Origin: Microbacterium oleivorans
GTDB lineage: Bacteria; Actinomycetota; Actinomycetes; Actinomycetales; Microbacteriaceae
Length of the DNA: 64,000 nucleotides
Assembly (NCBI RefSeq): GCF_013389665.1
Contig: NZ_CP058316.1
Span: 1,240,001-1,304,000, forward strand
Direction of reading: 5' to 3'
The stretch's first letter is position 1; every line of letters begins with the position of its first letter. Of this stretch, positions 1 to 12,149 are shown one piece after another. The notes under the pieces were generated by a model. That model searched no databases and was not told the DNA's origin. It saw only the letters and a program-made list of their open reading frames with translations. The position numbers and the translations under genes are program-made.

Positions 1-52
1 TTCGAACGGCACGCCCGAGCCCAGACGACTTCACCTCGCGCCCACCGCGAGC

Positions 53-694
53 ATGGTCCGCCTGCACGACGCGATCTCCCCTGAGGAGCTTCGAAGCCTG
101 CCCGTCCGCGTTTCCCACACCACCAGTCAGCTCGGAGTCCAGACGTACAAGGTCGGCGCGCACGACTCCTACCGGGAAGCATGGGGGCTTCGCGTCAACC
201 TCGACCCGCGACACCGCGCGATCATCATCGTGCTCGCTCACGGCGCCACGACCGGCGACCTGCAACGTGCTCGGGAAGCGGCCCGGCTCATCCGTGACGG
301 ACAGAAGTCGGACGGCTGGGAAGAGGTCAGTCTGCCTCGGGAAGGACGCGCCCTCGTGTACAAGCTCACCCTCGAGTCTGGCGACGTCGCGACAATCGAC
401 CCCGACCCGGTGCAGCCCTGCACCGAGGAGGGCTGCGCTGAGGTGTGGCACGGCATCCACGACCGCCACATCATCGCTCAGGCACATCGCTCGTTCGGCG
501 ACCTCAGCACCTACCAGATGGAGGTCTCGAAGCCCGTCATGGACGACGACGAGGAGGGGTACCGTCTCGTCGTCTACATCGACGACTTCGCCGGCGACCA
601 GGTCGCTGCGGCCGCTCTCATCGCCGATCTGCAGCGCATGGGAGAGAAGCTGAACCAGGCGCGCGCGGCGGGTCGGCTGAGCGGCGCGGCATGA
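53..694 (+). CDS. Hypothetical element protein, resembles DUF6907
   Basis: 213-residue protein of unknown function. The centre holds a Cys/His cluster (CTEEGCAEVWHG, about residues 123-134, plus a following HDRH), and the C-terminal half is a beta-rich stretch ending in a helix. A C-x4-C-x3-H cluster followed by a beta domain recalls the actinobacterial/phage family DUF6907, but I cannot confirm membership. It is the first complete gene in the window. It overlaps the next gene by ATGA, so it heads a co-translated string of small element proteins. No clear Shine-Dalgarno precedes the ATG, and only 52 bases lie upstream, so the true operon start may be outside the window. Confidence 0.75.
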   Translation: MVRLHDAISPEELRSLPVRVSHTTSQLGVQTYKVGAHDSYREAWGLRVNLDPRHRAIIIVLAHGATTGDLQRAREAARLIRDGQKSDGWEEVSLPREGRALVYKLTLESGDVATIDPDPVQPCTEEGCAEVWHGIHDRHIIAQAHRSFGDLSTYQMEVSKPVMDDDEEGYRLVVYIDDFAGDQVAAAALIADLQRMGEKLNQARAAGRLSGAA

Positions 695-1170
695 CTCACG
701 TCGGCGCTGAGCTCCTGTGGCTGCGCTCCCGCGCCCGCCTGACACTCGAGGAGGCCGCACGGGCAGCAGGCGTGACTCCGGGTCGCCTCGCTGCGGTAGA
801 GAGCGGCGTGGAAGCAATCACGCCCGCCAGCGCGGTCCGGTTAGCCGGCTCGCTTGTCGAAGTCATCCGAGCACGCTTCGAAGCCGCACAGCCCGCCCCC
901 TCCCTTCCCCCTGCCGACCTCGCCGCGATCCTGTTCGTGCTCCGTGAGAACGGACCCAGCACGCACAACGAGATCTACGCCGCCTACGTCCAAACGACCG
1001 CGCACCCCCGCCTCGCCGAGGACTGGGTGCGATGGGCCGTCAGCCACCTCCACCAGGCCGGCTACGTGACGTACGACTCCATCGCCGGCCGCGGCCCTCA
1101 CGGGCGACGAGCACGCCGATGGATGCTCATCACACCCGCCTCCCCCGACCCGATCGATGCGACGGCATGA
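691..1170 (+). CDS. XRE-like helix-turn-helix protein with C-terminal winged-helix-like part
   Basis: 159 residues. The N-terminal 60 residues read as an XRE-type helix-turn-helix (LTLEEAARAAGVTPGRLAAVESG). Residues about 75-150 (ILFVLRENGPSTHNEIYAAY...WVRWAVSHLHQAGYV) look like a winged-helix domain. The ATG lies in an ATGA overlap with the upstream stop, which fixes the start. It precedes the replication-initiator-like gene and could control copy number or element transcription; that role is inferred from position only. Its stop overlaps the start of a possible 26-codon gene, again by ATGA. Confidence 0.8.
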   Translation: MTHVGAELLWLRSRARLTLEEAARAAGVTPGRLAAVESGVEAITPASAVRLAGSLVEVIRARFEAAQPAPSLPPADLAAILFVLRENGPSTHNEIYAAYVQTTAHPRLAEDWVRWAVSHLHQAGYVTYDSIAGRGPHGRRARRWMLITPASPDPIDATA

Positions 1171-1247
1171 CGAACAGACACATCCCCTCGGCGAGCGCAC
1201 GAGCGAACGCTGCGCTCGCCGAGGTCTGCACGCCGGAGGAGTCATGA
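1167..1247 (+). CDS. Possible 26-residue coupled small protein
   Basis: A 26-codon reading frame (MTNRHIPSASARANAALAEV...) lies exactly between the HTH gene and the initiator gene. Its ATG overlaps the upstream stop as ATGA, and its own TGA overlaps the downstream ATG as ATGA. Two exact junctions suggest translational relay from one gene to the next. It has no recognisable domain and could simply be a coupling leader. The GGAGGA at 1235-1240, inside its 3' end, serves the next gene. Confidence 0.4.
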   Translation: MTNRHIPSASARANAALAEVCTPEES

Positions 1248-2041
1248 TGGGCGCAGGTCTCGCGCTACAGGCGTTCGCCGTCGCCGATCGCGTCGGCCTC
1301 GGGCACCCTGCCACCCGCCTCTACGTCTACATGGCGACGGTGGCGATCGACAGCGATGCTGCGCCCGCTTTCTGGGGCGGGCGCGATGCCCTCGCCCAGG
1401 CGATCGGTAAGAGCGGCGGCGCCGGCCATTCTGCGGTGAAGCGAGCCATCCAGGAGCTCACGACGGCCGAGCTCATCACCGCTGACAACCAGGCCCACCG
1501 AGGCATGTCCGCGAGGTACCTCATGCGCGACGGTGCAGGCAGCTCACTCACCCCCAAAGGGGACCGCTCAACGACCCCCTTGTTATCCACACTGGGGACC
1601 GCTGAGCGGTCCCCTTCCTCCGAGAAAGGGGACCGCTCAGCGACAGAAAGGGGACCGCTCACCGGTCCAAAGGGGACCGCTCACCGGTCCCCCGAGGAGG
1701 AAGAGGAAAAAGAGGAGGAGCTACGCGCACGCGCGACCCCCACCCTTCCCCTCGATGGCCTCGACTCCCCCGCTTATCCGACGCAGTGCGAGAAGCACCA
1801 GAACGGACCGAACTCGTCACCGTGCTTCGCGTGCGGTGAGGCACGCAAAGACCACGCGCGCCGTGACGGCGCCGCCCGTCGACGCGCACGCCCCGCCGCA
1901 CTCAAGCACCGCATCATCGACGGCCGCCGCGTCTGCGACAACCGCCCCCACGTCCCCACCCGTGACGGCAGTTGCATCAACTGCGAGATCCGACCCGACG
2001 ACCTCACCCTCACCCTCACCCCCGAGGTGCTGACCGCATGA
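1244..2041 (+). CDS. Replication-initiator-like winged-helix/zinc-finger protein
   Basis: 265 residues. Residues 10-95 look like a replication-initiator winged helix (ATRLYVYMATVAIDSD...GGAGHSAVKRAIQEL). A low-complexity hinge rich in KGDRS/KGTAHRS and EEEEEKEEE follows at about residues 105-160. Two Cys clusters end the protein (CEKHQ...CFACG and CDNRP...CINC). The hinge is encoded by iterons and a DnaA box in the DNA, as in phage O-type initiators whose origin lies inside the gene. GGAGGA at 1235-1240 sits 3 bases from this ATG and 6 bases from a second ATG at 1247; either may be used. The next gene overlaps by ATGA. Replication initiation is inferred from architecture and origin, not from a named family match. 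Confidence 0.65.
   Translation: MMGAGLALQAFAVADRVGLGHPATRLYVYMATVAIDSDAAPAFWGGRDALAQAIGKSGGAGHSAVKRAIQELTTAELITADNQAHRGMSARYLMRDGAGSSLTPKGDRSTTPLLSTLGTAERSPSSEKGDRSATERGPLTGPKGTAHRSPEEEEEKEEELRARATPTLPLDGLDSPAYPTQCEKHQNGPNSSPCFACGEARKDHARRDGAARRRARPAALKHRIIDGRRVCDNRPHVPTRDGSCINCEIRPDDLTLTLTPEVLTA
1556..1683 (+). other. Putative replication origin: iteron array inside the initiator gene
   Basis: Four identical copies of AAAGGGGACCGCTCA start at 1556, 1625, 1647 and 1669. A fifth core, GGGGACCGCT, lies at 1594-1603 and faces an inverted copy at 1605-1614, forming a dyad. The last three direct copies are 22 bp apart, about two helical turns. The four exact copies fall in all three codon phases of the gene, so selection acts on DNA rather than protein. 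A purine-rich stretch (about 1693-1722) follows. This is the layout of an iteron origin placed within its initiator gene. Confidence 0.75.
1583..1591 (+). promoter_or_regulatory. DnaA box within putative origin
   Basis: TTATCCACA is an exact match to the classical DnaA box (TTATNCACA). It lies between the first iteron and the dyad copy, and supports use of host DnaA at this origin. Confidence 0.7.
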
Positions 2042-2199
2042 CCATCACCGACCCTCAGGAGCCGCCACCGTACGACTGCCGCGCTCGCCGACACAAAGTC
2101 ATCACCGCGGACCGGATATGCGTCCTGTGCGGCGCACGCGGCGTCACCGACGCCCTCCGGACCACCACACCCCCGCTCGACCTCAATGACCAGCCCTAA
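2038..2199 (+). CDS. Small Cys-pair protein
   Basis: 53 residues, coupled to the initiator gene by an ATGA overlap. It contains one CxxC pair (ICVLCGARG, about residues 28-36), the signature of half a zinc ribbon, and no other recognisable feature. Function unknown. It is one of three neighbouring element proteins carrying short zinc-ribbon-like motifs. Confidence 0.6.
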   Translation: MTITDPQEPPPYDCRARRHKVITADRICVLCGARGVTDALRTTTPPLDLNDQP

Positions 2200-2245
2200 C
2201 CACCCATGGCGCTCGCCGAGGGTGTCCGACCCCGAGAGAAGAATC

Positions 2246-2542
2246 ATGACCGAACCGACCGAGTTCCTCGCCCACACCGCGGACGACTGTGCCGCGGACC
2301 GTGTGGACGTGACCGAACACGAAGAGCAGGACATCACCACCCTGCATTGCGTCGACTGCGGCGCACACGCCGCGTACAAGCCTGACGGCACACAGCTTGC
2401 CCAGCCCGATCAGGGCGGGGCGATGACCGGCGTCAAGCAGGGCGCCGCATACGACGGGATCGGGTTCACCATCCCCACCGGCAACGAGGGCTCCAACGCA
2501 CAGCGCGAGTGGAAGAACCTTCTCAAGAAGAACGGACACTGA
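2246..2542 (+). CDS. Hypothetical protein with zinc-ribbon-like motif
   Basis: 98 residues. A CVDCGAHAAYKPDG motif lies near residues 34-47, and a basic C-terminus (AQREWKNLLKKNGH) follows. GAGAGAAG just upstream of the ATG is a reasonable ribosome site. An earlier in-frame ATG at 2186 would overlap the previous gene and has no such site. The function is unknown; it belongs to the same string of element genes. Confidence 0.65.
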   Translation: MTEPTEFLAHTADDCAADRVDVTEHEEQDITTLHCVDCGAHAAYKPDGTQLAQPDQGGAMTGVKQGAAYDGIGFTIPTGNEGSNAQREWKNLLKKNGH

Positions 2543-2544
2543 CC

Positions 2545-2850
2545 ATGCCTCAGCACGGCGAATATCGAGCCGGAGTCGGCTTCTACGACAGCACGATCAA
2601 GGGCTGGGTCAAAGACCCTGCCAAGCTCCCTGAGGTCATCGGCGACCGCACCAAGCTGCCGACCAGCGTGCCCGACTGGGTGAGCGGGAAGGCGAGAAGT
2701 TTCAAGGAGAATCCGCAGATGGAGCGCCTGATCCAGTTGCGGGACTCAGACAAGGCCGACGACCGGGCGAAATATGAAGCCGTGGCGAAGGGCAACCTCC
2801 GCATGGCAGTCGGCAACTACGAGCAGGCCAAGACGGCAGCGGCCGAGTGA
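2545..2850 (+). CDS. Hypothetical element protein
   Basis: 101 residues, starting 2 bases after the previous stop. It is mostly charged and helical towards the C-terminus (MERLIQLRDSDKADDRAKYEAVAKGNLRMAVGNYEQAKTAA is split by no obvious domain boundary in this soluble part). There is no signal peptide or membrane segment. Function unknown. Its stop overlaps the next ATG (ATGA), so the two are probably co-translated. Confidence 0.65.
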   Translation: MPQHGEYRAGVGFYDSTIKGWVKDPAKLPEVIGDRTKLPTSVPDWVSGKARSFKENPQMERLIQLRDSDKADDRAKYEAVAKGNLRMAVGNYEQAKTAAAE

Positions 2851-3029
2851 TGGCGATCGACGCGCTCGACCCCGGCCCGAACGGCGACTACCCACACCTG
2901 GACATGACACTGCAGCCCACCGGCCTCCGCACTCAGACCGCCCCGGACGGCACGAAGGTGCGAATCGACGTCGAGGCGACCGGGCCAGACGGGCGCCGCG
3001 TGTCCGAGCTCAATCCGCAGCAGGACTGA
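2847..3029 (+). CDS. Small hypothetical protein
   Basis: 60 residues, acidic at the N-terminus and beta-like in the second half (GLRTQTAPDGTKVRIDVEATG). It begins at ATGATG in an ATGA overlap with the preceding gene. No family recognised. It ends the coupled run; a 155-bp gap with a long-range inverted repeat follows. Confidence 0.6.
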   Translation: MMAIDALDPGPNGDYPHLDMTLQPTGLRTQTAPDGTKVRIDVEATGPDGRRVSELNPQQD

Positions 3030-3041
3030 CCCCGTGAACCT

Positions 3042-3150
3042 CCACGCTGGGCGTGAACGTCACCGCCTCGTGCGCCATGAGCGAGGGCCACGGATCGAAG
3101 GCAGCGAGCGCGTTCCTTTCACCGCCACGACCCGCCTGCGCCCAGCGTGG
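3042..3150. repeat. 12-bp inverted repeat in an intergenic gap
   Basis: CCACGCTGGGCG (3042-3053) is matched by CGCCCAGCGTGG (3139-3150), 85 bp apart. The left arm overlaps a GTGAAC pair at 3034 and 3052. The repeat sits between the coupled run and the next small gene; it may be an operator pair or a residue of recombination. Confidence 0.45.
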
Positions 3151-3184
3151 ACCCCTCATCTAACCGACACCACCGGAGTGACCA

Positions 3185-3364
3185 ATGGACAACTACGAGA
3201 CATTGAAAGCCACTCTCATCGCGGCGATCCGAGCCAACGACTTCGGGTCTGCGTACACCGCGTGGACTCGTCTCCACAGCACCCCCGACGCTCCTCACGC
3301 CGGCGCCTTCGTCGACTGGATCATCGATCACGGCTCCCACGCCGTGACTGGCGGCCGCGCCTGA
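3185..3364 (+). CDS. Small hypothetical protein
   Basis: 59-residue helical protein (MDNYETLKATLIAAIRAND..., ending HAVTGGRA). A GGAG site lies about 7 bases before the ATG. Trp/His-rich helices (YTAWTRLHST, FVDWIIDHGSHA) look like a small soluble fold. Function unknown. A strong GC hairpin follows the stop directly, suggesting the end of a transcript. Confidence 0.6.
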   Translation: MDNYETLKATLIAAIRANDFGSAYTAWTRLHSTPDAPHAGAFVDWIIDHGSHAVTGGRA

Positions 3365-3373
3365 TGACCCTCC

Positions 3374-3409
3374 CCGGAGGGGTGGGGGCACCCCCTCGCG
3401 CCCCTCCGG
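3374..3409 (+). terminator. Hairpin terminator candidate
   Basis: CCGGAGGGG (3374-3382) pairs perfectly with CCCCTCCGG (3401-3409), and a GGGGG/CCCCC stem is nested inside. There is no T-run, as is common in actinobacterial terminators. It lies 10 bases after the stop of the 59-residue gene. Confidence 0.55.
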
Positions 3410-3440
3410 TCAGGACCGCCGGGGATGGCAAAAAAGCTCC

Positions 3441-3483
3441 GTACGGGTTCCCCCGTTCATGCTCTATGCCGTCAAACCCGTAC
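3441..3483. promoter_or_regulatory. 9-bp inverted repeat upstream of spike-like gene
   Basis: GTACGGGTT (3441-3449) and AACCCGTAC (3475-3483) flank a 25-bp spacer within the 207-bp gap before the beta-helix gene. It could be an operator or part of the leader. The rest of the gap shows nothing recognisable. Confidence 0.35.
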
Positions 3484-3571
3484 AGTCTCGCCGACCGCCG
3501 TCTCGAAAATCCCACCTGACCGGGGGCTCGTCCGCTACGAGCCACCGTGCACCCGAAAGGAGCCCCGCCTC

Positions 3572-4264
3572 TTGGTCAACCGCGTCAACATGAATCAGCC
3601 GGAAAAGAACGTCAGGCAGCTGTGGAACGCCATCCTCGACCTGCAGACCATGGTCTACGGACGCTCATCCTCAGTGACCCGGGGGCGCTTTCGCTTCGCC
3701 GGCAACGAATCGCTACTCGTCCAGGGATCGCAGAAGGTCGAGGGGTGGCTCGTCGTCACCGGCACCGAGCGGGTCACCGGCACGCTCGAGGTGCAGGGCC
3801 GGCTCATCGCATCGGGCGCCATCGGCCTCACCGGCCCGACGAGCATCACCGGCAGTACCACCATCGCCGGCGACGTGTCACTCAAGGGCACTATGGCCGT
3901 CGACGGCGGCGAGATCCAGGTCAAGGGCGGCGACTCCCCCGCCACCCTCCGGGACGGAGCTATGTCGTTTGCGACCGGCGGCAAGGTCGAGGCCGACGCA
4001 GCATCCGGCGGCGTCCGCCTCGCGGCCGGGTCCGGGAACAAGGTCTACGTCGGCGACGGCATCGTCGCCGTGCAGCTCGCCGGCGGCGGAACCCTGACCA
4101 TCACCGAGGGCGGGACCACCATCAACGACCCGAACGGCGTCACGGTGAGTAGCGATCTCCGCGTCACGGGCGCCACCACCGTTGATCGAACCGATACCGT
4201 GACCGGCGTCGAGTCGAACGCCTACATTGATCCGGCGACTGGCCGCATACAGCGCATCCTCTAG
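3572..4264 (+). CDS. Beta-helix/spike-like repeat protein
   Basis: 230 residues from a TTG placed 9 bases after AAAGGAG; an ATG six codons later is the alternative start. After a short helical N-terminus the chain runs in periodic Gly/Val/Thr beta repeats (VQGRLIASGAIGLTG, TSITGSTTIAGDVSLKG and similar), typical of beta-helical tail-spike or bactofilin-like folds. A short tail (NAYIDPATGRIQRIL) ends it. In a mobile element it may be a phage-derived adsorption or structural protein, which is inference. Its stop overlaps head-on with the stop of the minus-strand lipoprotein gene. Confidence 0.65.
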   Translation: MVNRVNMNQPEKNVRQLWNAILDLQTMVYGRSSSVTRGRFRFAGNESLLVQGSQKVEGWLVVTGTERVTGTLEVQGRLIASGAIGLTGPTSITGSTTIAGDVSLKGTMAVDGGEIQVKGGDSPATLRDGAMSFATGGKVEADAASGGVRLAAGSGNKVYVGDGIVAVQLAGGGTLTITEGGTTINDPNGVTVSSDLRVTGATTVDRTDTVTGVESNAYIDPATGRIQRIL

Positions 4265-4662
4265 TCGAGGTAGCAGAGCGAGTTCTCGGCGACCTTCACG
4301 AGGACTCGGTTGTTCTCGTCAGCGTCCTCACCTTCGCCGCCGAGCGGGCGCACGTCGGCGGGGTCGGCGCCCGCTGCGATTTCCTCGCACGCGGTGTAGC
4401 CAGCGGCGAGCCACTCGGTATCGTTCGGCTCGCCCCCGCCCCACCAGGTGCCCGCGAGGCTCGCGAGGTAGAACTCCTGGGCGGTCATGTCGCCCCAGTG
4501 GGCAGGGCTGTCAGTCGCGAGGGGCGACGACGCCTCAGCGGAAGGCGCCTCGGCGATCAACGGCTCCGCGCTTTCGATCGGCTCGTCAACGGCGGGAGCG
4601 GAGCACCCTCCCAGCACGGCGACCAGGACAGCGGCTGTGGCCGCGTGAGCTGCGCGCTTCAT
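4261..4662 (-). CDS. DUF732-like lipoprotein
   Basis: 133 residues. The N-terminus is a lipoprotein signal (MKRAAHAATAAVLVAVLGGC) with the lipobox Cys at residue 20. A low-complexity Ala/Glu/Pro linker follows. The C-terminal half (FYLASLAG...LLAAGYTACEEIAAG-like...VAENSLCYLD) matches the layout of DUF732, with two Cys that could form a disulfide. The membrane-anchored extracytoplasmic location follows from the lipobox; the function is unknown. It overlaps by ATGA with the ribbon-helix-helix gene, so the pair forms one transcript. Alternative: an element-encoded surface exclusion or anti-phage factor, with no direct evidence. Confidence 0.65.
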   Translation of the reverse strand: MKRAAHAATAAVLVAVLGGCSAPAVDEPIESAEPLIAEAPSAEASSPLATDSPAHWGDMTAQEFYLASLAGTWWGGGEPNDTEWLAAGYTACEEIAAGADPADVRPLGGEGEDADENNRVLVKVAENSLCYLD

Positions 4663-4793
4663 CGCTTGTTCGTCTGCGCGTAGTTGCTGAGCGCTCGCCG
4701 AATGACGTCGCTGATGTTCTCTTGATTGGCCTCTGCCGCCGCTTTGGCAGCCGCCCAGAGAGAGTCCGACACTCGGACATTGCGGGAGGTCAT
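4659..4793 (-). CDS. Ribbon-helix-helix protein
   Basis: 44 residues (MTSRNVRVSDSLWAAAKAAA...). A short beta strand followed by two helices is the ribbon-helix-helix/Arc-type DNA-binding fold. GAAGAAG precedes the ATG. A GTG five codons upstream (4806-4808) lacks a ribosome site. It is divergent from the 91-residue gene at 4872 and co-translated with the lipoprotein. It is probably an autoregulator of this small divergent locus, by analogy with antitoxin-type RHH proteins. Confidence 0.65.
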   Translation of the reverse strand: MTSRNVRVSDSLWAAAKAAAEANQENISDVIRRALSNYAQTNKR

Positions 4794-4859
4794 CGGCTTC
4801 TTCGACACAGCTGATAGCGTAACGCCAAACGTAGGTACAAACACAAGAGAACGGCACCC

Positions 4860-5147
4860 GTGGTCGGAAACATGAACTTCGAATCCCCTCAAGACCCACC
4901 ACAGGTCGAGGAAAGTCTCGCGCCCATCGCCTACGAGCTCGCGGTGATCCGCGAGCGCATCGTCAACGAGGTGGGGGCTATGAGGCCATCACCCAAGAAG
5001 ATCGAGGCAGCTTTGAACGGCATGCAAGAGGTCTTGCAGGCCGTCGTGGTCGCGATCTACAAACTCGAGACAGGCGACCGGCCTCTGCTGCAGTCCGAGA
5101 AACGTGCCTTCCGGCTGGACGACGGAGAGCCGCCGCTTCGAGACTGA
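4860..5147 (+). CDS. Hypothetical helical protein upstream of dprA-like gene
   Basis: Up to 95 residues from GTG 4860, with GAGAA 9 bases before it; ATG 4872 gives 91 residues. It is strongly helical and charged (SLAPIAYELAVIRERIVNEVG, KKIEAALNGMQEVLQAVVVAIYKLE), like a small coiled-coil or helical bundle. No family recognised. It lies 137 bp before the DprA-like gene on the same strand and may belong to that cargo, but the gap is large enough for a separate promoter. Confidence 0.55.
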   Translation: MVGNMNFESPQDPPQVEESLAPIAYELAVIRERIVNEVGAMRPSPKKIEAALNGMQEVLQAVVVAIYKLETGDRPLLQSEKRAFRLDDGEPPLRD

Positions 5148-5284
5148 GATCCTGGGGCGCCACGGCGGTCGAACGCGATGATGCCGATTCGCCCAAGAAA
5201 TGTTGGCGCGCCTCACTCCGGCACCCGCCTTGCACCACGATGATGACAACCACCAAGATCCATGTGGGTGGTCGGAGGTAACCT

Positions 5285-6199
5285 GTGATCATGCGGGCTC
5301 ACGATGACGACCTGGCGCTGCTCGCGCTGGCGATGCGCCCAGGCTTCTCTTGGGCGCAGACGCGTCTGCGGATAGAGCAGCTCGGGTCACCGCTGGCCGT
5401 CCTCGATGCGGCCTACGACGGCCAGCTTGTCGTCAGCGACCGTGAGGAAGAGCTACACGCTGCGGCAGAGCAGCTTGCCAATCTGAGTGAGCGTGGAATC
5501 CACGTCGCAGTGATCGGGGGGGACGACTACCCGGCCGCTCTGCGGACGGTTCACGATGCACCGCCCGTCCTGTACTGGCAGGGCTCGCTTTCACCTCTCG
5601 ACGCCAACGCAGTCGCCATCGTCGGGACACGGGCCCCGTCGTCAGCCGGAGCCACCTTCGCTCGAGATCTCGCATCGAACCTCGCTGCGGAGCACATACC
5701 AGTCGTGAGCGGCCTCGCCCGAGGCGTCGACACCGAAGCCATGCGCGCCTCCCTTCGCGCGGGAGGTCGCACCATCGGTGTGATCGGCACTGGCCACGGC
5801 GTCTACTACCCCCGCGAGAACACAGCACTACAGGACGAGATCGCTGCGTCCCATCTGCTCCTCTCTCAGTTCGCTCCGGGGTCATCCGCGACTAAGAAGA
5901 CCTTCCCGATGCGGAACGTCGTAATGTCCGGTTTCTCGTCCGCAACGGTCATCGCTGAGGCCGGGGAGACGTCAGGCACACGCATCCAGGCGCGGGCTGC
6001 GGTGAAGCATGGTCGGCCCCTGATTCTGAGCGAGCGCGTCGCCGACAGTGTGGCGTGGGCACGCGAGCTGATCTCCACGGGCTACGACGTCTCGGTAGCT
6101 CAGGACGCCGCAGACGCCGCACAGCTCGTTCTCCAGCTCCACAGGCGGCGAAGCGAGACTGCGGCCGGCTGGTCGCTCGGCTCCCTACTGTCAGCGTGA
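5285..6199 (+). CDS. DprA/Smf-like DNA-processing protein (mobile-element copy)
   Basis: 304 residues. The DprA Rossmann core is complete: YPAALRTVHDAPPVLYWQG (82-100), VAIVGTRAPSSAG (110-122), SGLARGVDTEA (142-152), TIGVIGTGHGVYYPREN (163-179), and FPMRNVVMSGFSSATVIAEAGETSG in two adjoining segments (207-231). The C-terminal winged helix of chromosomal DprA is missing. The usual His of the SGLAxGIDxxAH motif is replaced. GGAGG at 5274-5278 sits 6 bases before GTG 5285. Chromosomal DprA binds ssDNA and loads RecA. This version overlaps a ComF-like gene by GTGA and lies at the element's edge, which suggests a dedicated two-gene DNA-handling or defence cargo (inference). Confidence 0.85.
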   Translation: MIMRAHDDDLALLALAMRPGFSWAQTRLRIEQLGSPLAVLDAAYDGQLVVSDREEELHAAAEQLANLSERGIHVAVIGGDDYPAALRTVHDAPPVLYWQGSLSPLDANAVAIVGTRAPSSAGATFARDLASNLAAEHIPVVSGLARGVDTEAMRASLRAGGRTIGVIGTGHGVYYPRENTALQDEIAASHLLLSQFAPGSSATKKTFPMRNVVMSGFSSATVIAEAGETSGTRIQARAAVKHGRPLILSERVADSVAWARELISTGYDVSVAQDAADAAQLVLQLHRRRSETAAGWSLGSLLSA

Positions 6200-6957
6200 C
6201 GGCGCCCTTCCTCGACGACCTCGAGAGGACCATCCGAGGGGCGTACCGGAACGTCCCGCAGTTCCATCCAGGTCTCTGTCGAGACTGCACGGCTCCCACC
6301 ACCTCGCCGGACTACCTGCGATGCGTCGCATGTGACGGGCACATGGCGCAGCCATACCCGCGTGCCACCGGCGGCTCCATCGCGCTGAGCTGGGCACCGA
6401 TGGACTCCCAGGGGTACCAAGATCTACGTCAGTACAAGGAGCCCGGGGCGACGCCCGACCAGGTCGGGCGACTTCGGACGCTGTTCGGGCTCTCGCTCAC
6501 GCATCACCGCGAGTGCATCGTCCGCACGATCCCCGGGCGCCCGTTCGGTGTCGCACACGTGCCGAGCACGAGCGGCACACGTCCAGGCCCGCATCCCATT
6601 GAGACCCTGCTCCTTCCGATGCTGTCGAATGAAATCCCCCGCACAGTCCCCGTGTTCGTTGGACCGCCAGAGACAGACCGGAATGCTCGGCGGCAGATGA
6701 ATCCGGACAACTGGTCGGTGGCTCCCCCCGCCCATGGCGTCGATCGAGTGTTGGTCATCGACGACTCTTGGGTCACCGGCGGTCACGCCCACTCCGTCGC
6801 CTCGGCATTCGAACGCATCGGCGTCGCCGCGCGCATCATCGTCCTCGGGCGGGTGCTTGACCCGACCCGCAACGACCACGGACGGTACCTTCGCGAGCAC
6901 CCCGCGGAGCCCTTCGATAGCCGGCGTTGCCCCATCCACGGAGAAGTCCACGCCTGA
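6196..6957 (+). CDS. ComF-like zinc-ribbon phosphoribosyltransferase
   Basis: 253 residues. An N-terminal zinc ribbon (Cys28, Cys31, Cys43, Cys46) is followed by a phosphoribosyltransferase-type domain with the PRPP loop VLVIDDSWVTGGH (185-197). Zinc ribbon plus PRTase is the ComF/ComFC arrangement, and ComF works with DprA in natural transformation. The gene is about 20 residues longer than typical ComF and diverged between the two parts. A second Cys-His element (CPIHGEVH) closes the protein. Its GTG overlaps the dprA-like stop, so the two are produced together. Substrate and reaction are unknown. Confidence 0.75.
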   Translation: MTAPFLDDLERTIRGAYRNVPQFHPGLCRDCTAPTTSPDYLRCVACDGHMAQPYPRATGGSIALSWAPMDSQGYQDLRQYKEPGATPDQVGRLRTLFGLSLTHHRECIVRTIPGRPFGVAHVPSTSGTRPGPHPIETLLLPMLSNEIPRTVPVFVGPPETDRNARRQMNPDNWSVAPPAHGVDRVLVIDDSWVTGGHAHSVASAFERIGVAARIIVLGRVLDPTRNDHGRYLREHPAEPFDSRRCPIHGEVHA

Positions 6958-6971
6958 GCGCCGGACACACC

Positions 6972-6990
6972 GTGGCCACCACCTGGCCAC
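6972..6990 (+). terminator. Hairpin terminator candidate
   Basis: GTGGCCA (6972-6978) and TGGCCAC (6984-6990) form a 7-bp stem with a 5-base loop. It begins 14 bases after the ComF-like stop and has no T-run. Confidence 0.4.
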
Positions 6991-7084
6991 AACCGTGCCA
7001 CCCCCACCGAGATCCCACAAGTGCGTAGCACCCCCAAACTGCCCGTAATTACGCGGATACTCCGCTCAGCCCGCCTCAGCAGCT

Positions 7085-7124
7085 GGGCCAGACGGCGGGT
7101 TCGACTCCCGCCGTCGCGTCTACC
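7085..7124 (+). other. tRNA 3'-end-like segment, possible attachment site
   Basis: GGGTTCGACTCCC is a canonical tRNA T-arm core, here within a perfect 9-bp stem (7091-7099/7107-7115) around a TTCGACT loop. No D-arm or anticodon arm precedes it, so it is not a whole tRNA. It marks the junction between element genes and the chromosomal run starting at 7156. Elements that integrate into a tRNA leave such a duplicated 3' end at the far side. An ordinary terminator hairpin is the alternative. Confidence 0.45.
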
Positions 7125-8760: not shown

Positions 8761-9093
8761 TCAGCCCGCGTCGAAGACGCCCCCGCCGCGAGGCGTGTCG
8801 GGCGGTTCGGGCACGACGTAGAGGCCGGAGGGCGAGTTCGCCGTGTGGGTCAAAGCACCGAGCCACGCCCGGTTGAGCGAGGGCGTGCGCCCGCCGTAGT
8901 ACTTGAAGACGAGACCGCAGCCCGGATGCAGCCACACCGTGGTGCGACCGTCGCCGATGCTGACGTCGTCCTTCCAGGTGAGGGTGAAGGCCTCGCCGCG
9001 ACGCAGCTTGGTGGTGATCACCGTCTGCAAGTGGGCGAGAGTGCGATCCTCGAAATCGGCTCGGATCTGGTTCTCGTAGATGAAGCGGCCCAT
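8761..9093 (-). CDS. Small Microbacteriaceae-type protein, DUF7882-like (copy 1)
   Basis: 110 residues beginning MGRFIYENQIRADFEDRTLAHLQ. This short family (FEDRTLAHL...KLRRGE.F.L.W...GR...W..P...LVFK..G...P.LN.AWL) is frequent in Microbacteriaceae and is sometimes filed as an ATP-dependent DNA ligase, although it is far too short and lacks a ligase motif. The function is unknown. A close paralogue lies at 9661 in the opposite orientation, with a 71-residue gene between them. Confidence 0.75.
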   Translation of the reverse strand: MGRFIYENQIRADFEDRTLAHLQTVITTKLRRGEAFTLTWKDDVSIGDGRTTVWLHPGCGLVFKYYGGRTPSLNRAWLGALTHTANSPSGLYVVPEPPDTPRGGGVFDAG

Positions 9094-9990: not shown

Positions 9991-10927
9991 CGAGCCGGCG
10001 CGCCGGGGGCTGCAGACAGACGACCCCGACCGCGCCCAGCAGTCCATGAGCTCCCTCTACGAGACGGAGCTCTCGCTCTCGGTCGACTCCGCCACGTCGT
10101 TCCGCTACGAGATGGCCGCCCTCGCGCACCCGACGGCCGCCACGGCGGCGGTGCGCTTCACCGGCACGATGCGCACCTCCACGCGGTCGTTCCCGCGGCT
10201 CATCGCCGCCCATGCCGCCCAGGGCCGGCACCGCTGGCAGATCGGGGGCGAGTCGGGGGACGGCCGGACAGCGTTCATCGTGCCCCCGGACACCGAGTTC
10301 TCGGCCGAGTTCGGACACCTGCACCTGCGCACGTTCAGTGTCACCACCGAGGTGATCGAGCACGTGCTCCGTGCGCTCTTGGGCGACGAGCCGCGACGCA
10401 TCCAGTTCTCCGGACTCAACAAGCGGGCCGGCAACCCGCGACTGGTAGCCGAGACGCTGCGCTTCCTCGAGGCGACCGCCCTGGCCGACGGCAAGGTGGC
10501 CGCCTCGCCCTTGATGCGCTCGCAGCTCATGCATCAGGCCGTCGCCTCCCTCGTCACCGCGTTCCCGCTCATCGATGCCGACGAGACCGACCAGCGGCGC
10601 CCGACAGCTCGCGCGGTGCGCCGGGCCGTGGCGTTCATGGAGGAGAACGTCGGCAACCCCATCAGCATCGGCGACATCGCCGTCGCCGCGGGCACGTCGG
10701 TGCGGGCCCTGCAGAGCGCGTTCCACAAGGCGTACGAGATCCCGCCGAGCACCTATCTGCGGCGGTTGCGCATCGAAGGCGCGCATCACGAGCTGCGCGC
10801 AGCCCACCCCGGTTCGGCCACGGTGCGCGACGTCGCGATGCGCTGGGGCTTCGCCCACACGGGCCGGTTCGCCCAGCTCTACGCCGCGATGTACGGCGAG
10901 CATCCCTCGCACACGCTGCGCCGCTGA
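9983..10927 (+). CDS. AraC-family transcriptional regulator
   Basis: 314 residues. The C-terminal 100 residues carry the double helix-turn-helix of AraC (ISIGDIAVAAGTSVRALQSAFHKAY and TVRDVAMRWGFAHTGRFAQLYAAMYGEHPS). The N-terminal domain is of the type with a TDDPDRAQQSMSSLYE helix, which favours the TTG start at 9983 over the ATG at 10046. No target operon is adjacent on the same strand. It overlaps the previous gene by 8 bases. The effector is unknown. Confidence 0.85.
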   Translation: MSSEPARRGLQTDDPDRAQQSMSSLYETELSLSVDSATSFRYEMAALAHPTAATAAVRFTGTMRTSTRSFPRLIAAHAAQGRHRWQIGGESGDGRTAFIVPPDTEFSAEFGHLHLRTFSVTTEVIEHVLRALLGDEPRRIQFSGLNKRAGNPRLVAETLRFLEATALADGKVAASPLMRSQLMHQAVASLVTAFPLIDADETDQRRPTARAVRRAVAFMEENVGNPISIGDIAVAAGTSVRALQSAFHKAYEIPPSTYLRRLRIEGAHHELRAAHPGSATVRDVAMRWGFAHTGRFAQLYAAMYGEHPSHTLRR

Positions 10928-10952
10928 CGCTCGCGCCTGATCGGCGGGGGGC

Positions 10953-12149
10953 TCAGCCGGAGCGGGGCGGCGTCTGCTCGGACTGATCGGGCAACAGGAT
11001 CCACACGCGCGCCCCGCCGGCGGGCGATTCGTCGAGTCCGATGCGTCCGCCATGGGCCTCGATCACCCGGCGGCACGTCGAGAGGCCGATGCCGAGGCCC
11101 TCGGCCTCGATGTCACCCCGCTCCATGAGAGCGAAGACCCGCTCGCGGTCGGCGACCGGCACACCCGGGCCGTTGTCGTCGACGGTGATGCGCCAGCCGC
11201 CGTGCACCGGATGCGCGACCACGGCGACCTCGGGCACCCTCCCGGCGGCGGCGGTGAACTTCAACGCGTTGGCGACGAGATTCTGCAGCACCGCGCGCAG
11301 CAGGGTCGCATCGCCGACGGGCTCGATGTCGACGTCGACGCGGACACCGGCACCCGAGCCGGCGATCGAGGCGTCGAGGTCCTCGATCACCGCGTTCACG
11401 ACGGCGGCGAGGTCGATGCGCGAGCGCTGCGGGCTCGCGCCGCCGGCCCGGGCGTAGGCGAGGATGTCCGAGATCATGTCGTTCATCCGCTCGGCGGCCG
11501 ACTCGGCGCGGGCGAGCACGCGCGCGACATCCGGGGCGTTGTCCATGTCGGGGCTGTCGATCGCGAGCTCGAGGAACCCGCTGAGCGCCGTGAGGGGGTT
11601 GCGCAGGTCGTGACTGATCTGCCCGGCGAAACGGGAGAGCTGATCGTTCGACGAGCTCAGCTGGCGGCTGATGCGGCGCAGCTCGAGCAGGTCCACGACC
11701 TGGTGGGCGAGCAGATCCAGAGCCTCGCGACGGGACTCGTCGAGGTCGCCGACGGACTCATTGAAGACGCACAGGGTTCCGATGGCGACGCCGGCCGGGG
11801 TGATGAGCGGACTCGAGGCGTAGAAGCGCACATGCGCGACCTCGCCGGTGACGAACGGGTTGGTCGCGAACCGTTCGTCGAGCCGGGCGTCGGGCACCAC
11901 GACCCGTCCGGGGCGCGCGATGACCGCCGCGCACATCGAGTCCTCGCGGGAGCAGACGGCGGGCTCGAAGCCCACGGCCGCGATCTGGTGCTGCGAGCGG
12001 TCGTCGATGATGTTGATGACGGCGGTGTCGACGCCGCACACCGTCGCAGCCAGGCGCACGATGCCCTGCAGATCGGGCGAAGGCGCCTCACCGATCACGT
12101 GGTACGCGTCGATGGCCTCGCGGCGGGTGATGTCGAGTTGAGAGACCAT
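10953..12149 (-). CDS. GAF-domain sensor histidine kinase
   Basis: 398 residues without membrane segments. A GAF domain (about 15-155, including SREDSMCAAVIARPGRVVVPDARLD in two parts) is followed by HisKA with phospho-acceptor His180 (SHDLRNPLT) and a HATPase domain with N-box LQNLVANALKF, DNGPGV and GLGIGLS. The GAF type resembles those in cyanobacterial and actinobacterial light or redox sensors. No response regulator is adjacent, so its partner is encoded elsewhere. The ATG follows TAGCGT by 7 bases, which indicates a leaderless mRNA. Confidence 0.88.
   Translation of the reverse strand: MVSQLDITRREAIDAYHVIGEAPSPDLQGIVRLAATVCGVDTAVINIIDDRSQHQIAAVGFEPAVCSREDSMCAAVIARPGRVVVPDARLDERFATNPFVTGEVAHVRFYASSPLITPAGVAIGTLCVFNESVGDLDESRREALDLLAHQVVDLLELRRISRQLSSSNDQLSRFAGQISHDLRNPLTALSGFLELAIDSPDMDNAPDVARVLARAESAAERMNDMISDILAYARAGGASPQRSRIDLAAVVNAVIEDLDASIAGSGAGVRVDVDIEPVGDATLLRAVLQNLVANALKFTAAAGRVPEVAVVAHPVHGGWRITVDDNGPGVPVADRERVFALMERGDIEAEGLGIGLSTCRRVIEAHGGRIGLDESPAGGARVWILLPDQSEQTPPRSG

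What the first reader, a model, noticed from the sequence alone, without database searches (positions are those of the whole stretch)
5285..6957. DprA-ComF-like two-gene cargo at the edge of a mobile element
A truncated DprA (no winged helix, altered SGLAxG motif) is translationally coupled to a ComF-like zinc-ribbon phosphoribosyltransferase. DprA and ComF normally serve natural transformation, but as separate chromosomal genes. A coupled, diverged pair beside a putative attachment site is where satellites and prophages carry defence cargo. It could be a nucleotide- or ssDNA-sensing immune module or an element-maintenance pair.
Basis: partly seen in the sequence, partly recalled or inferred. 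Interest (0 to 1): 0.75.

Follow-up and report, generated by a model that had tools for sequence, protein, structure and literature searches.

The report
Mobile DprA–ComF-type toxin–antitoxin-like pair
Two overlapping genes at the end of a small integrating DNA element, one like the DNA-uptake protein DprA without its last domain and one like the enzyme ComF, look like an actinobacterial variant of the known ShosTA phage-defence toxin–antitoxin pair, but this has not been tested in cells.

Summary
The pair is real. The DprA-like gene 5285–6199 lacks the winged helix; a zinc-ribbon phosphoribosyltransferase (PRTase), 6196–6957, overlaps it by 4 bases. They end a 9.4-kb element bounded by an exact 26-bp repeat of a tRNA-Met 3' end, with a tyrosine integrase beside the tRNA, left of the window. 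The 'altered SGLAxG motif' is wrong: SGLARGVD is canonical. The host keeps another DprA and a ComF-like gene elsewhere. Of 26 distinct PRTase loci traced, window included, 22 have the DprA gene directly upstream: Microbacteriaceae, Streptomyces, mycobacteria, four plasmids, two Gordonia phages. It is patchy: 7 of 366 genus genomes have the PRTase, 6 of them with DprA. The 22 partner DprAs form one clade, apart from core DprA and sister to three PRTase-paired phage DprAs. Best reading: a ShosTA-like toxin–antitoxin or abortive-infection module. It differs from E. coli ShosTA: no N-terminal extra domain, a ComF-type zinc ribbon, no PADLOC hit for the window PRTase. Toxicity, antitoxin action and defence are inferred. 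New variant of a known kind.

The parts
5285..6199 (+). DprA-like gene without winged helix (304 aa), proposed antitoxin and sensor
6196..6957 (+). zinc-ribbon PRTase (253 aa), proposed toxin; GTG start overlaps the DprA stop by 4 bases
5708..5731 (+). DprA motif SGLARGVD (canonical)
   Evidence: alignments A3 and A4
6277..6333 (+). zinc-ribbon cysteines C28, C31, C43, C46
   Evidence: all four in 21 of 22 pair members; zinc binding itself inferred
6745..6783 (+). PRPP-loop motif RVLVIDDSWVTGG
   Evidence: acidic pair D/E-D in 22 of 22
7095..7120 (+). right attachment repeat, 26 bp identical to the 3' end of tRNA-Met at G000:C1:1237669-1237694
1..7094 (.). part of the element inside the window (about 9.4 kb in all; integrase at G000:C1:1237773-1239002, left of the window)
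   Evidence: integrase phrog_1 4.5e-67
1157..2041 (+). element gene with a weak replication-initiator match (3.3e-5)
   Evidence: start codon uncertain

Best explanation
A ShosTA-like two-gene toxin-antitoxin / abortive-infection module carried by a tRNA-Met integrative element. The ComF-type PRTase is the likely toxin: it would bind PRPP and disturb the nucleotide pool, or act at DNA. The winged-helix-less DprA is the likely antitoxin and sensor: it would bind single-stranded DNA, hold the PRTase in check, and let it go when phage replication or recombination makes unusual ssDNA or protein-DNA complexes. Shown here: gene pair, overlap, co-inheritance, domain content, conserved motifs, mobile setting, a clade apart from core DprA. 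Inferred: toxicity, neutralisation, trigger and defence.
For: 22 of 26 loci keep DprA directly upstream of the PRTase; correlated distances, r 0.864; one DprA clade (99/97), sister (100/97) to DprAs of phages Mana, Riah and phiOH2, each followed by a PRTase gene; the Mana and Riah PRTases match PADLOC ShosT at 1.2e-41 and 1.5e-44; ShosT is among the best structural rows and ShosA fits the DprA model over 273 residues; PRPP acidic pair in 22 of 22; carried by temperate phages, plasmids and repeat-bounded segments; a DprA-PRTase pair of a P2-like phage hotspot protects against T7 and lambda (PMC9122126 passage); mutating the acidic PRTase motif of RqlH removes its toxicity (PMC4670107 passage).
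Against: No experiment. PADLOC ShosT does not match the window PRTase, and its profile is unspecific: 384 of 396 genomes match. The ShosA profile also hits the host core DprA at 1.2e-52. By sequence the nearest solved DprA is that of S. pneumoniae (5.4e-36), ShosA only 4.9e-20 and 5.3e-20. The E. coli P2-type and Pf ShosA do not fall in the same DprA clade. 4 of 26 loci lack the DprA gene.
Confidence: 0.55

Rival explanations
1. Element addiction: the same toxin-antitoxin chemistry, but its job is to keep the element or plasmid by killing cells that lose it; defence is incidental.
For: Found on plasmids, phages and an integrative element; toxin-antitoxin names of the relatives (PMC9122126 passage).
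Against: Cannot be separated from defence by sequence. A genus relative holds AbiEi/AbiEii in a repeat-bounded segment at the same tRNA-Met, which fits defence cargo but AbiE is itself a toxin-antitoxin system.
Confidence: 0.25
2. DNA-handling helper: DprA and a ComF-type protein aid entry, recombination or establishment of the element or of incoming DNA, with no toxin.
For: DprA and ComF folds; ComFC binds ssDNA and PRPP (PMC9005727 passages); profile similarity to ComF over the ribbon.
Against: The host's other DprA and ComF-like genes lie elsewhere; the partner DprAs are a separate clade whose phage sisters pair with ShosT-like PRTases.
Confidence: 0.15
3. Chance neighbours: a salvage PRTase beside a stray DprA copy.
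For: PRTases are common; weak adenine-PRTase similarity (0.0053).
Against: Order kept in 22 of 26 loci of several families, with correlated divergence.
Confidence: 0.03

Closest known systems
ShosTA (ShosT PRTase toxin, ShosA DprA-like antitoxin)
   Different: ShosT aligns only by residues 149-414, so its N-terminal part (HAD in the annotation of the Pf phage homologue) is absent here; the PRTase has a ComF-type zinc ribbon and no PADLOC ShosT match; DprA clade differs from the E. coli P2-type and Pf ShosA
Compact DprA-PRTase pairs of phages Mana, Riah and phiOH2
   Same: DprA gene followed by a PRTase gene; sister DprA clade
   Different: Mana and Riah PRTases match PADLOC ShosT strongly and lack the ribbon cysteines in alignment A2; phiOH2's is 401 aa and matches PsyrT best
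ComF/ComFC
   Different: not in a competence locus; no TIGR00201 match for the window gene at E <= 1e-5 (one search found one place in the host, at 2730984); partner DprA instead of ComFA
RqlHI / PsyrTA
   Same: a PRTase domain restrained by a DprA-like protein (PMC4670107 passages); window DprA matches PsyrA at 1.3e-36
   Different: the PRTase there is fused to a RecQ-like helicase; no helicase domain here

Membership tests
ShosTA | DprA-like gene adjacent to a PRTase gene | tested here: met
   22 of 26 loci
ShosTA | PADLOC ShosA profile match | tested here: inconclusive
   5.2e-67, but the host core DprA also matches at 1.2e-52
ShosTA | PADLOC ShosT profile match | tested here: not met
   none at E <= 1 for the window PRTase; none at E <= 0.1 for L003, L030, L090; more distant relatives 8.2e-8 to 0.024 or none
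ShosTA | N-terminal extra (HAD-type) domain of E. coli ShosT | tested here: not met
   253 aa; ShosT aligned by its residues 149-414 only. The compact ShosT-like proteins lack it too, so it does not define the whole group
ShosTA | PRTase toxic, DprA neutralising, phage protection | not testable with these tools
   needs experiments
Competence DprA | C-terminal winged helix | tested here: not met
   no DprA_WH; 98 aa after the FxxRN motif versus 147-174 in 21 of 27 core rows. That some true DprAs lack the domain is recalled
Competence DprA | NCBIfam TIGR00732 cut-off (191.15 bits) | tested here: not met
   171.2 and 172 bits; the host's other DprA reaches 205.3
ComF | zinc ribbon plus PRTase domain | tested here: met
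   four cysteines, fold, profile alignment
ComF | TIGR00201 match | tested here: not met
   host search at E <= 1e-5 lists only 2730984-2731412; no match in that call, in 38 genomes, exceeded the curated cut-off, so the model suits this clade poorly

The most novel reading that the evidence does not exclude
A competence-derived immune module: mobile elements of actinobacteria joined a DprA-clade ssDNA sensor to a ComF-type zinc-ribbon PRTase, a separately built branch of DprA-PRTase immunity in which the zinc ribbon contacts DNA in place of the extra domain of ShosT. Related PRTases may also be steered by another SLOG sensor (the convergent SIR2-STALD gene in L036 and L037).
Probability: 0.3. 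Interest if true: 0.65.

Novelty: new variant of a known kind. Interest (0 to 1): 0.45.

Why it matters
ShosTA-type systems are known from E. coli and Pseudomonas phages and, by automated annotation, from actinobacterial prophages (PMC10023795 passage). This clade is a ComF-type version whose PRTase PADLOC's models miss or hit only weakly, so it is probably undercounted. It ties two competence proteins, DprA and ComF, to a mobile toxin–antitoxin-like pair and can be tested in harmless laboratory hosts.

Tried and rejected
Core-competence reading: rejected, since the host's other DprA and ComF-like genes lie elsewhere and the DprA clade differs. PADLOC ShosT as a genome-wide marker: abandoned as unspecific (384 of 396). 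Viral contigs: 41 stretches matched a pattern, none encoded a relative. Empty-site proof by shared flanks: failed; both flanks have matches in most of 59 genus genomes, but in the rows listed I saw none side by side (lists capped), so the element rests on repeat, tRNA and integrase. Conserved operator upstream of dprA: none seen by eye in five loci beyond the ribosome site. The narrow PRTase profile (24 rows) was uninformative: probability 19 versus ComF, 18 versus compact ShosT, 9 versus HAD-type ShosT, 90 versus adenine PRTase over 45 columns. The ComF profile is also sticky: it matches compact ShosT (96.8), HAD-type ShosT (95.6) and adenine PRTase (96.4) well. PDB sequence search with the PRTase: nothing meaningful. 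PMC9503650: passages gave nothing useful.

The four of 26 loci without DprA are L035 (short frame beside a transposase-like ORF, read by eye), L036 and L037 (convergent with a SIR2–STALD gene) and L091 (partial match at a contig end). L013 and L014 are near-identical and both counted. In the tree 27 of 29 core loci gave an ORF with the motif; two of these (L172, L174) are second copies that fall beside the E. coli and Pf ShosA rows. The motif search misplaced or missed 3 of 22 pair rows and several core rows when tails were measured. The ComF set holds 24 of 30 loci. P0024, DprA and PRTase parts in one frame, looks frame-shifted and was not used in alignments. Repeats in L006 (31 bp), L093 (20 bp) and L034 (19 bp) were not counted as element ends.

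Full report
What is there. The window is bases 1240001–1304000 of a 3.35-Mb one-contig genome. The genus is probably Microbacterium: a same-genus genome (G884) has a contig of the same length, 3618786, as the one listed for M. foliorum; this name is an inference. At 5285–6199 lies a DprA-like gene (304 aa). Its stop codon overlaps the GTG start of a 253-aa PRTase, 6196–6957. The DprA has the Rossmann domain (Pfam 7e-59) and no DprA_WH match. The host's other DprA, at about 52.9 kb, has that domain and stands between comM-like and xerC-like ORFs (read by eye).

The element. Bases 7095–7120 repeat exactly part of the 3' end of a tRNA-Met(CAT) gene at G000:C1:1237621–1237696. Between the repeats lie about 9.4 kb with a tyrosine integrase next to the tRNA (phrog_1, 4.5e-67), an excisionase-like HTH protein (phrog_66, 7.5e-5; Pfam HTH_17, 4.2e-8) and a weak replication-initiator match (3.3e-5). 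The pair is the last cargo before the right end. No capsid or terminase family appeared among the 10 proteins scanned with PHROGs, which are only part of the element. The same tRNA-Met 3' end is repeated nearby in two other genus genomes (L081, 26 bp; L082, 30 bp), and the L082 segment holds an AbiEi/AbiEii pair (PADLOC 3e-84 and 3.9e-101).

Distribution. The PRTase family was found in 7 of 366 genomes of the genus, 6 of them with an adjacent DprA, and in 10 of 398 of the family, 7 of them with an adjacent DprA; the host is in both counts. So it is accessory. A pattern scan of genome contigs gave 6 loci, plasmids 5 records, phages 4 records of 2 phages. Of 26 distinct loci, the window included, 22 have a DprA gene directly upstream on the same strand. 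Eleven of the 22 overlap by 4 bases when longest-ORF starts are used. Two are Gordonia phages, Vasanti and Bosnia, each with an integrase gene within about 4 kb; four are plasmids (two Rhodococcus, Pseudonocardia, Mycobacterium branderi); three (the window, L032 and L094) lie within direct repeats at or beside a tRNA or RNase P RNA gene. L094 also has an integrase-domain ORF beside rnpB (1.4e-13); in L032 my three integrase queries found none. That makes 9 of 22 in recognisably mobile settings. The other 13 were screened only for exact repeats of 19 bases or more and for relatives of three integrases, so no enrichment figure is claimed.

Do the two genes belong together? Pairwise distances of the two proteins over 22 pairs correlate at r 0.864; none of 5000 permutations reached it (highest 0.427). 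Shared ancestry of hosts can raise such a value. A maximum-likelihood tree puts all 22 partner DprAs in one clade (99/97), with the DprAs of phages Mana, Riah and phiOH2 as sister (25 rows together, 100/97), apart from 25 of the 27 core actinobacterial rows. The E. coli P2-like and Pf ShosA rows fall elsewhere on long branches, with two second-copy 'core' rows. The tree holds no core DprA from outside the actinobacteria, so a wider sample could change the picture. In the 19 of 22 pair rows that the motif search placed correctly, 89–98 residues follow the FxxRN motif; in 21 of 27 core rows 147–174. Those pair rows read RNxxMS where most core rows read RNRxIxxL/M. The Mana, Riah and phiOH2 DprAs are each followed by a PRTase gene.

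How it probably works. A DprA+PRTase pair from a P2-like phage hotspot protects E. coli against T7 and lambda, and DprA homologues are antitoxins in shosTA and rqlHI (PMC9122126, passages). A review states that ShosT disturbs purine metabolism, that ShosA binds DNA, and that a T7 protein triggers the system (PMC12593503, passage; the primary paper, Pu et al. 2025, was not held). Hachiman and ShosTA are suggested to respond to protein–DNA complexes of phage replication or recombination (PMC10732053, passages). RqlH's PRTase domain is genotoxic and depends on its acidic motif (PMC4670107, passages). ComFC has the same zinc-finger and PRT domains and binds ssDNA and PRPP (PMC9005727, passages). 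A 2017 analysis had already discussed mobile-element PRTases beside ComFC and DprA-coupled systems (PMC5512222, passages). By analogy the window PRTase is the toxin and the DprA its restraint and sensor. Toxicity, restraint, trigger and defence are inferences.

Novelty. The kind is known. A description of this variant (ComF-type ribbon, no extra N-terminal domain, actinobacterial mobile elements, own DprA clade) did not turn up in searches, of which I saw listings only except for the passages named; they cover openly licensed papers. A survey reports ShosTA in actinobacterial prophages (PMC10023795, passage), and some of those may be this clade.

Noticed in passing
L036:9630-11864 and L037:9443-11711: Related PRTases without DprA lie convergent to a SIR2-STALD (ThsA-like) gene (SIR2_2 and STALD in Pfam, ThsA 2.1e-64 and 1.8e-65 in PADLOC): perhaps a PRTase paired with another SLOG-domain sensor.
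   Followed up: partly
L082:1376-7487: In another genome of the genus the same tRNA-Met 3' end bounds (30-bp repeat) a segment with an AbiEi/AbiEii pair: this tRNA may be a hotspot for such cargo.
   Followed up: partly
L032:7434-13590: A 34-bp direct repeat beside tRNA-Leu bounds a segment with the DprA-PRTase pair and an ORF that by eye looks like a Ser/Thr protein kinase, 10508-11362 (kinase motifs recalled).
   Followed up: no
L094:7202-14357: The pair lies in a segment bounded by a 33-bp repeat of the 3' end of the RNase P RNA gene, with an integrase-domain ORF beside it: a second kind of attachment site.
   Followed up: partly
L004:11531-12550: A second DprA-like gene on the other strand next to the pair, near a tRNA-Pro (Pfam 1.2e-29, PADLOC ShosA 1.2e-17).
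   Followed up: no
PADLOC models PDLC03961 (ShosA) and PDLC03962 (ShosT): Both are unspecific on their own: ShosA hits a core DprA at 1.2e-52, ShosT has matches in 384 of 396 actinobacterial genomes at E <= 0.001.
   Followed up: yes
L006:8904-10826: A 31-bp exact direct repeat tightly brackets the pair (8904-8934 and 10796-10826), as if the two genes had moved as a cassette.
   Followed up: no
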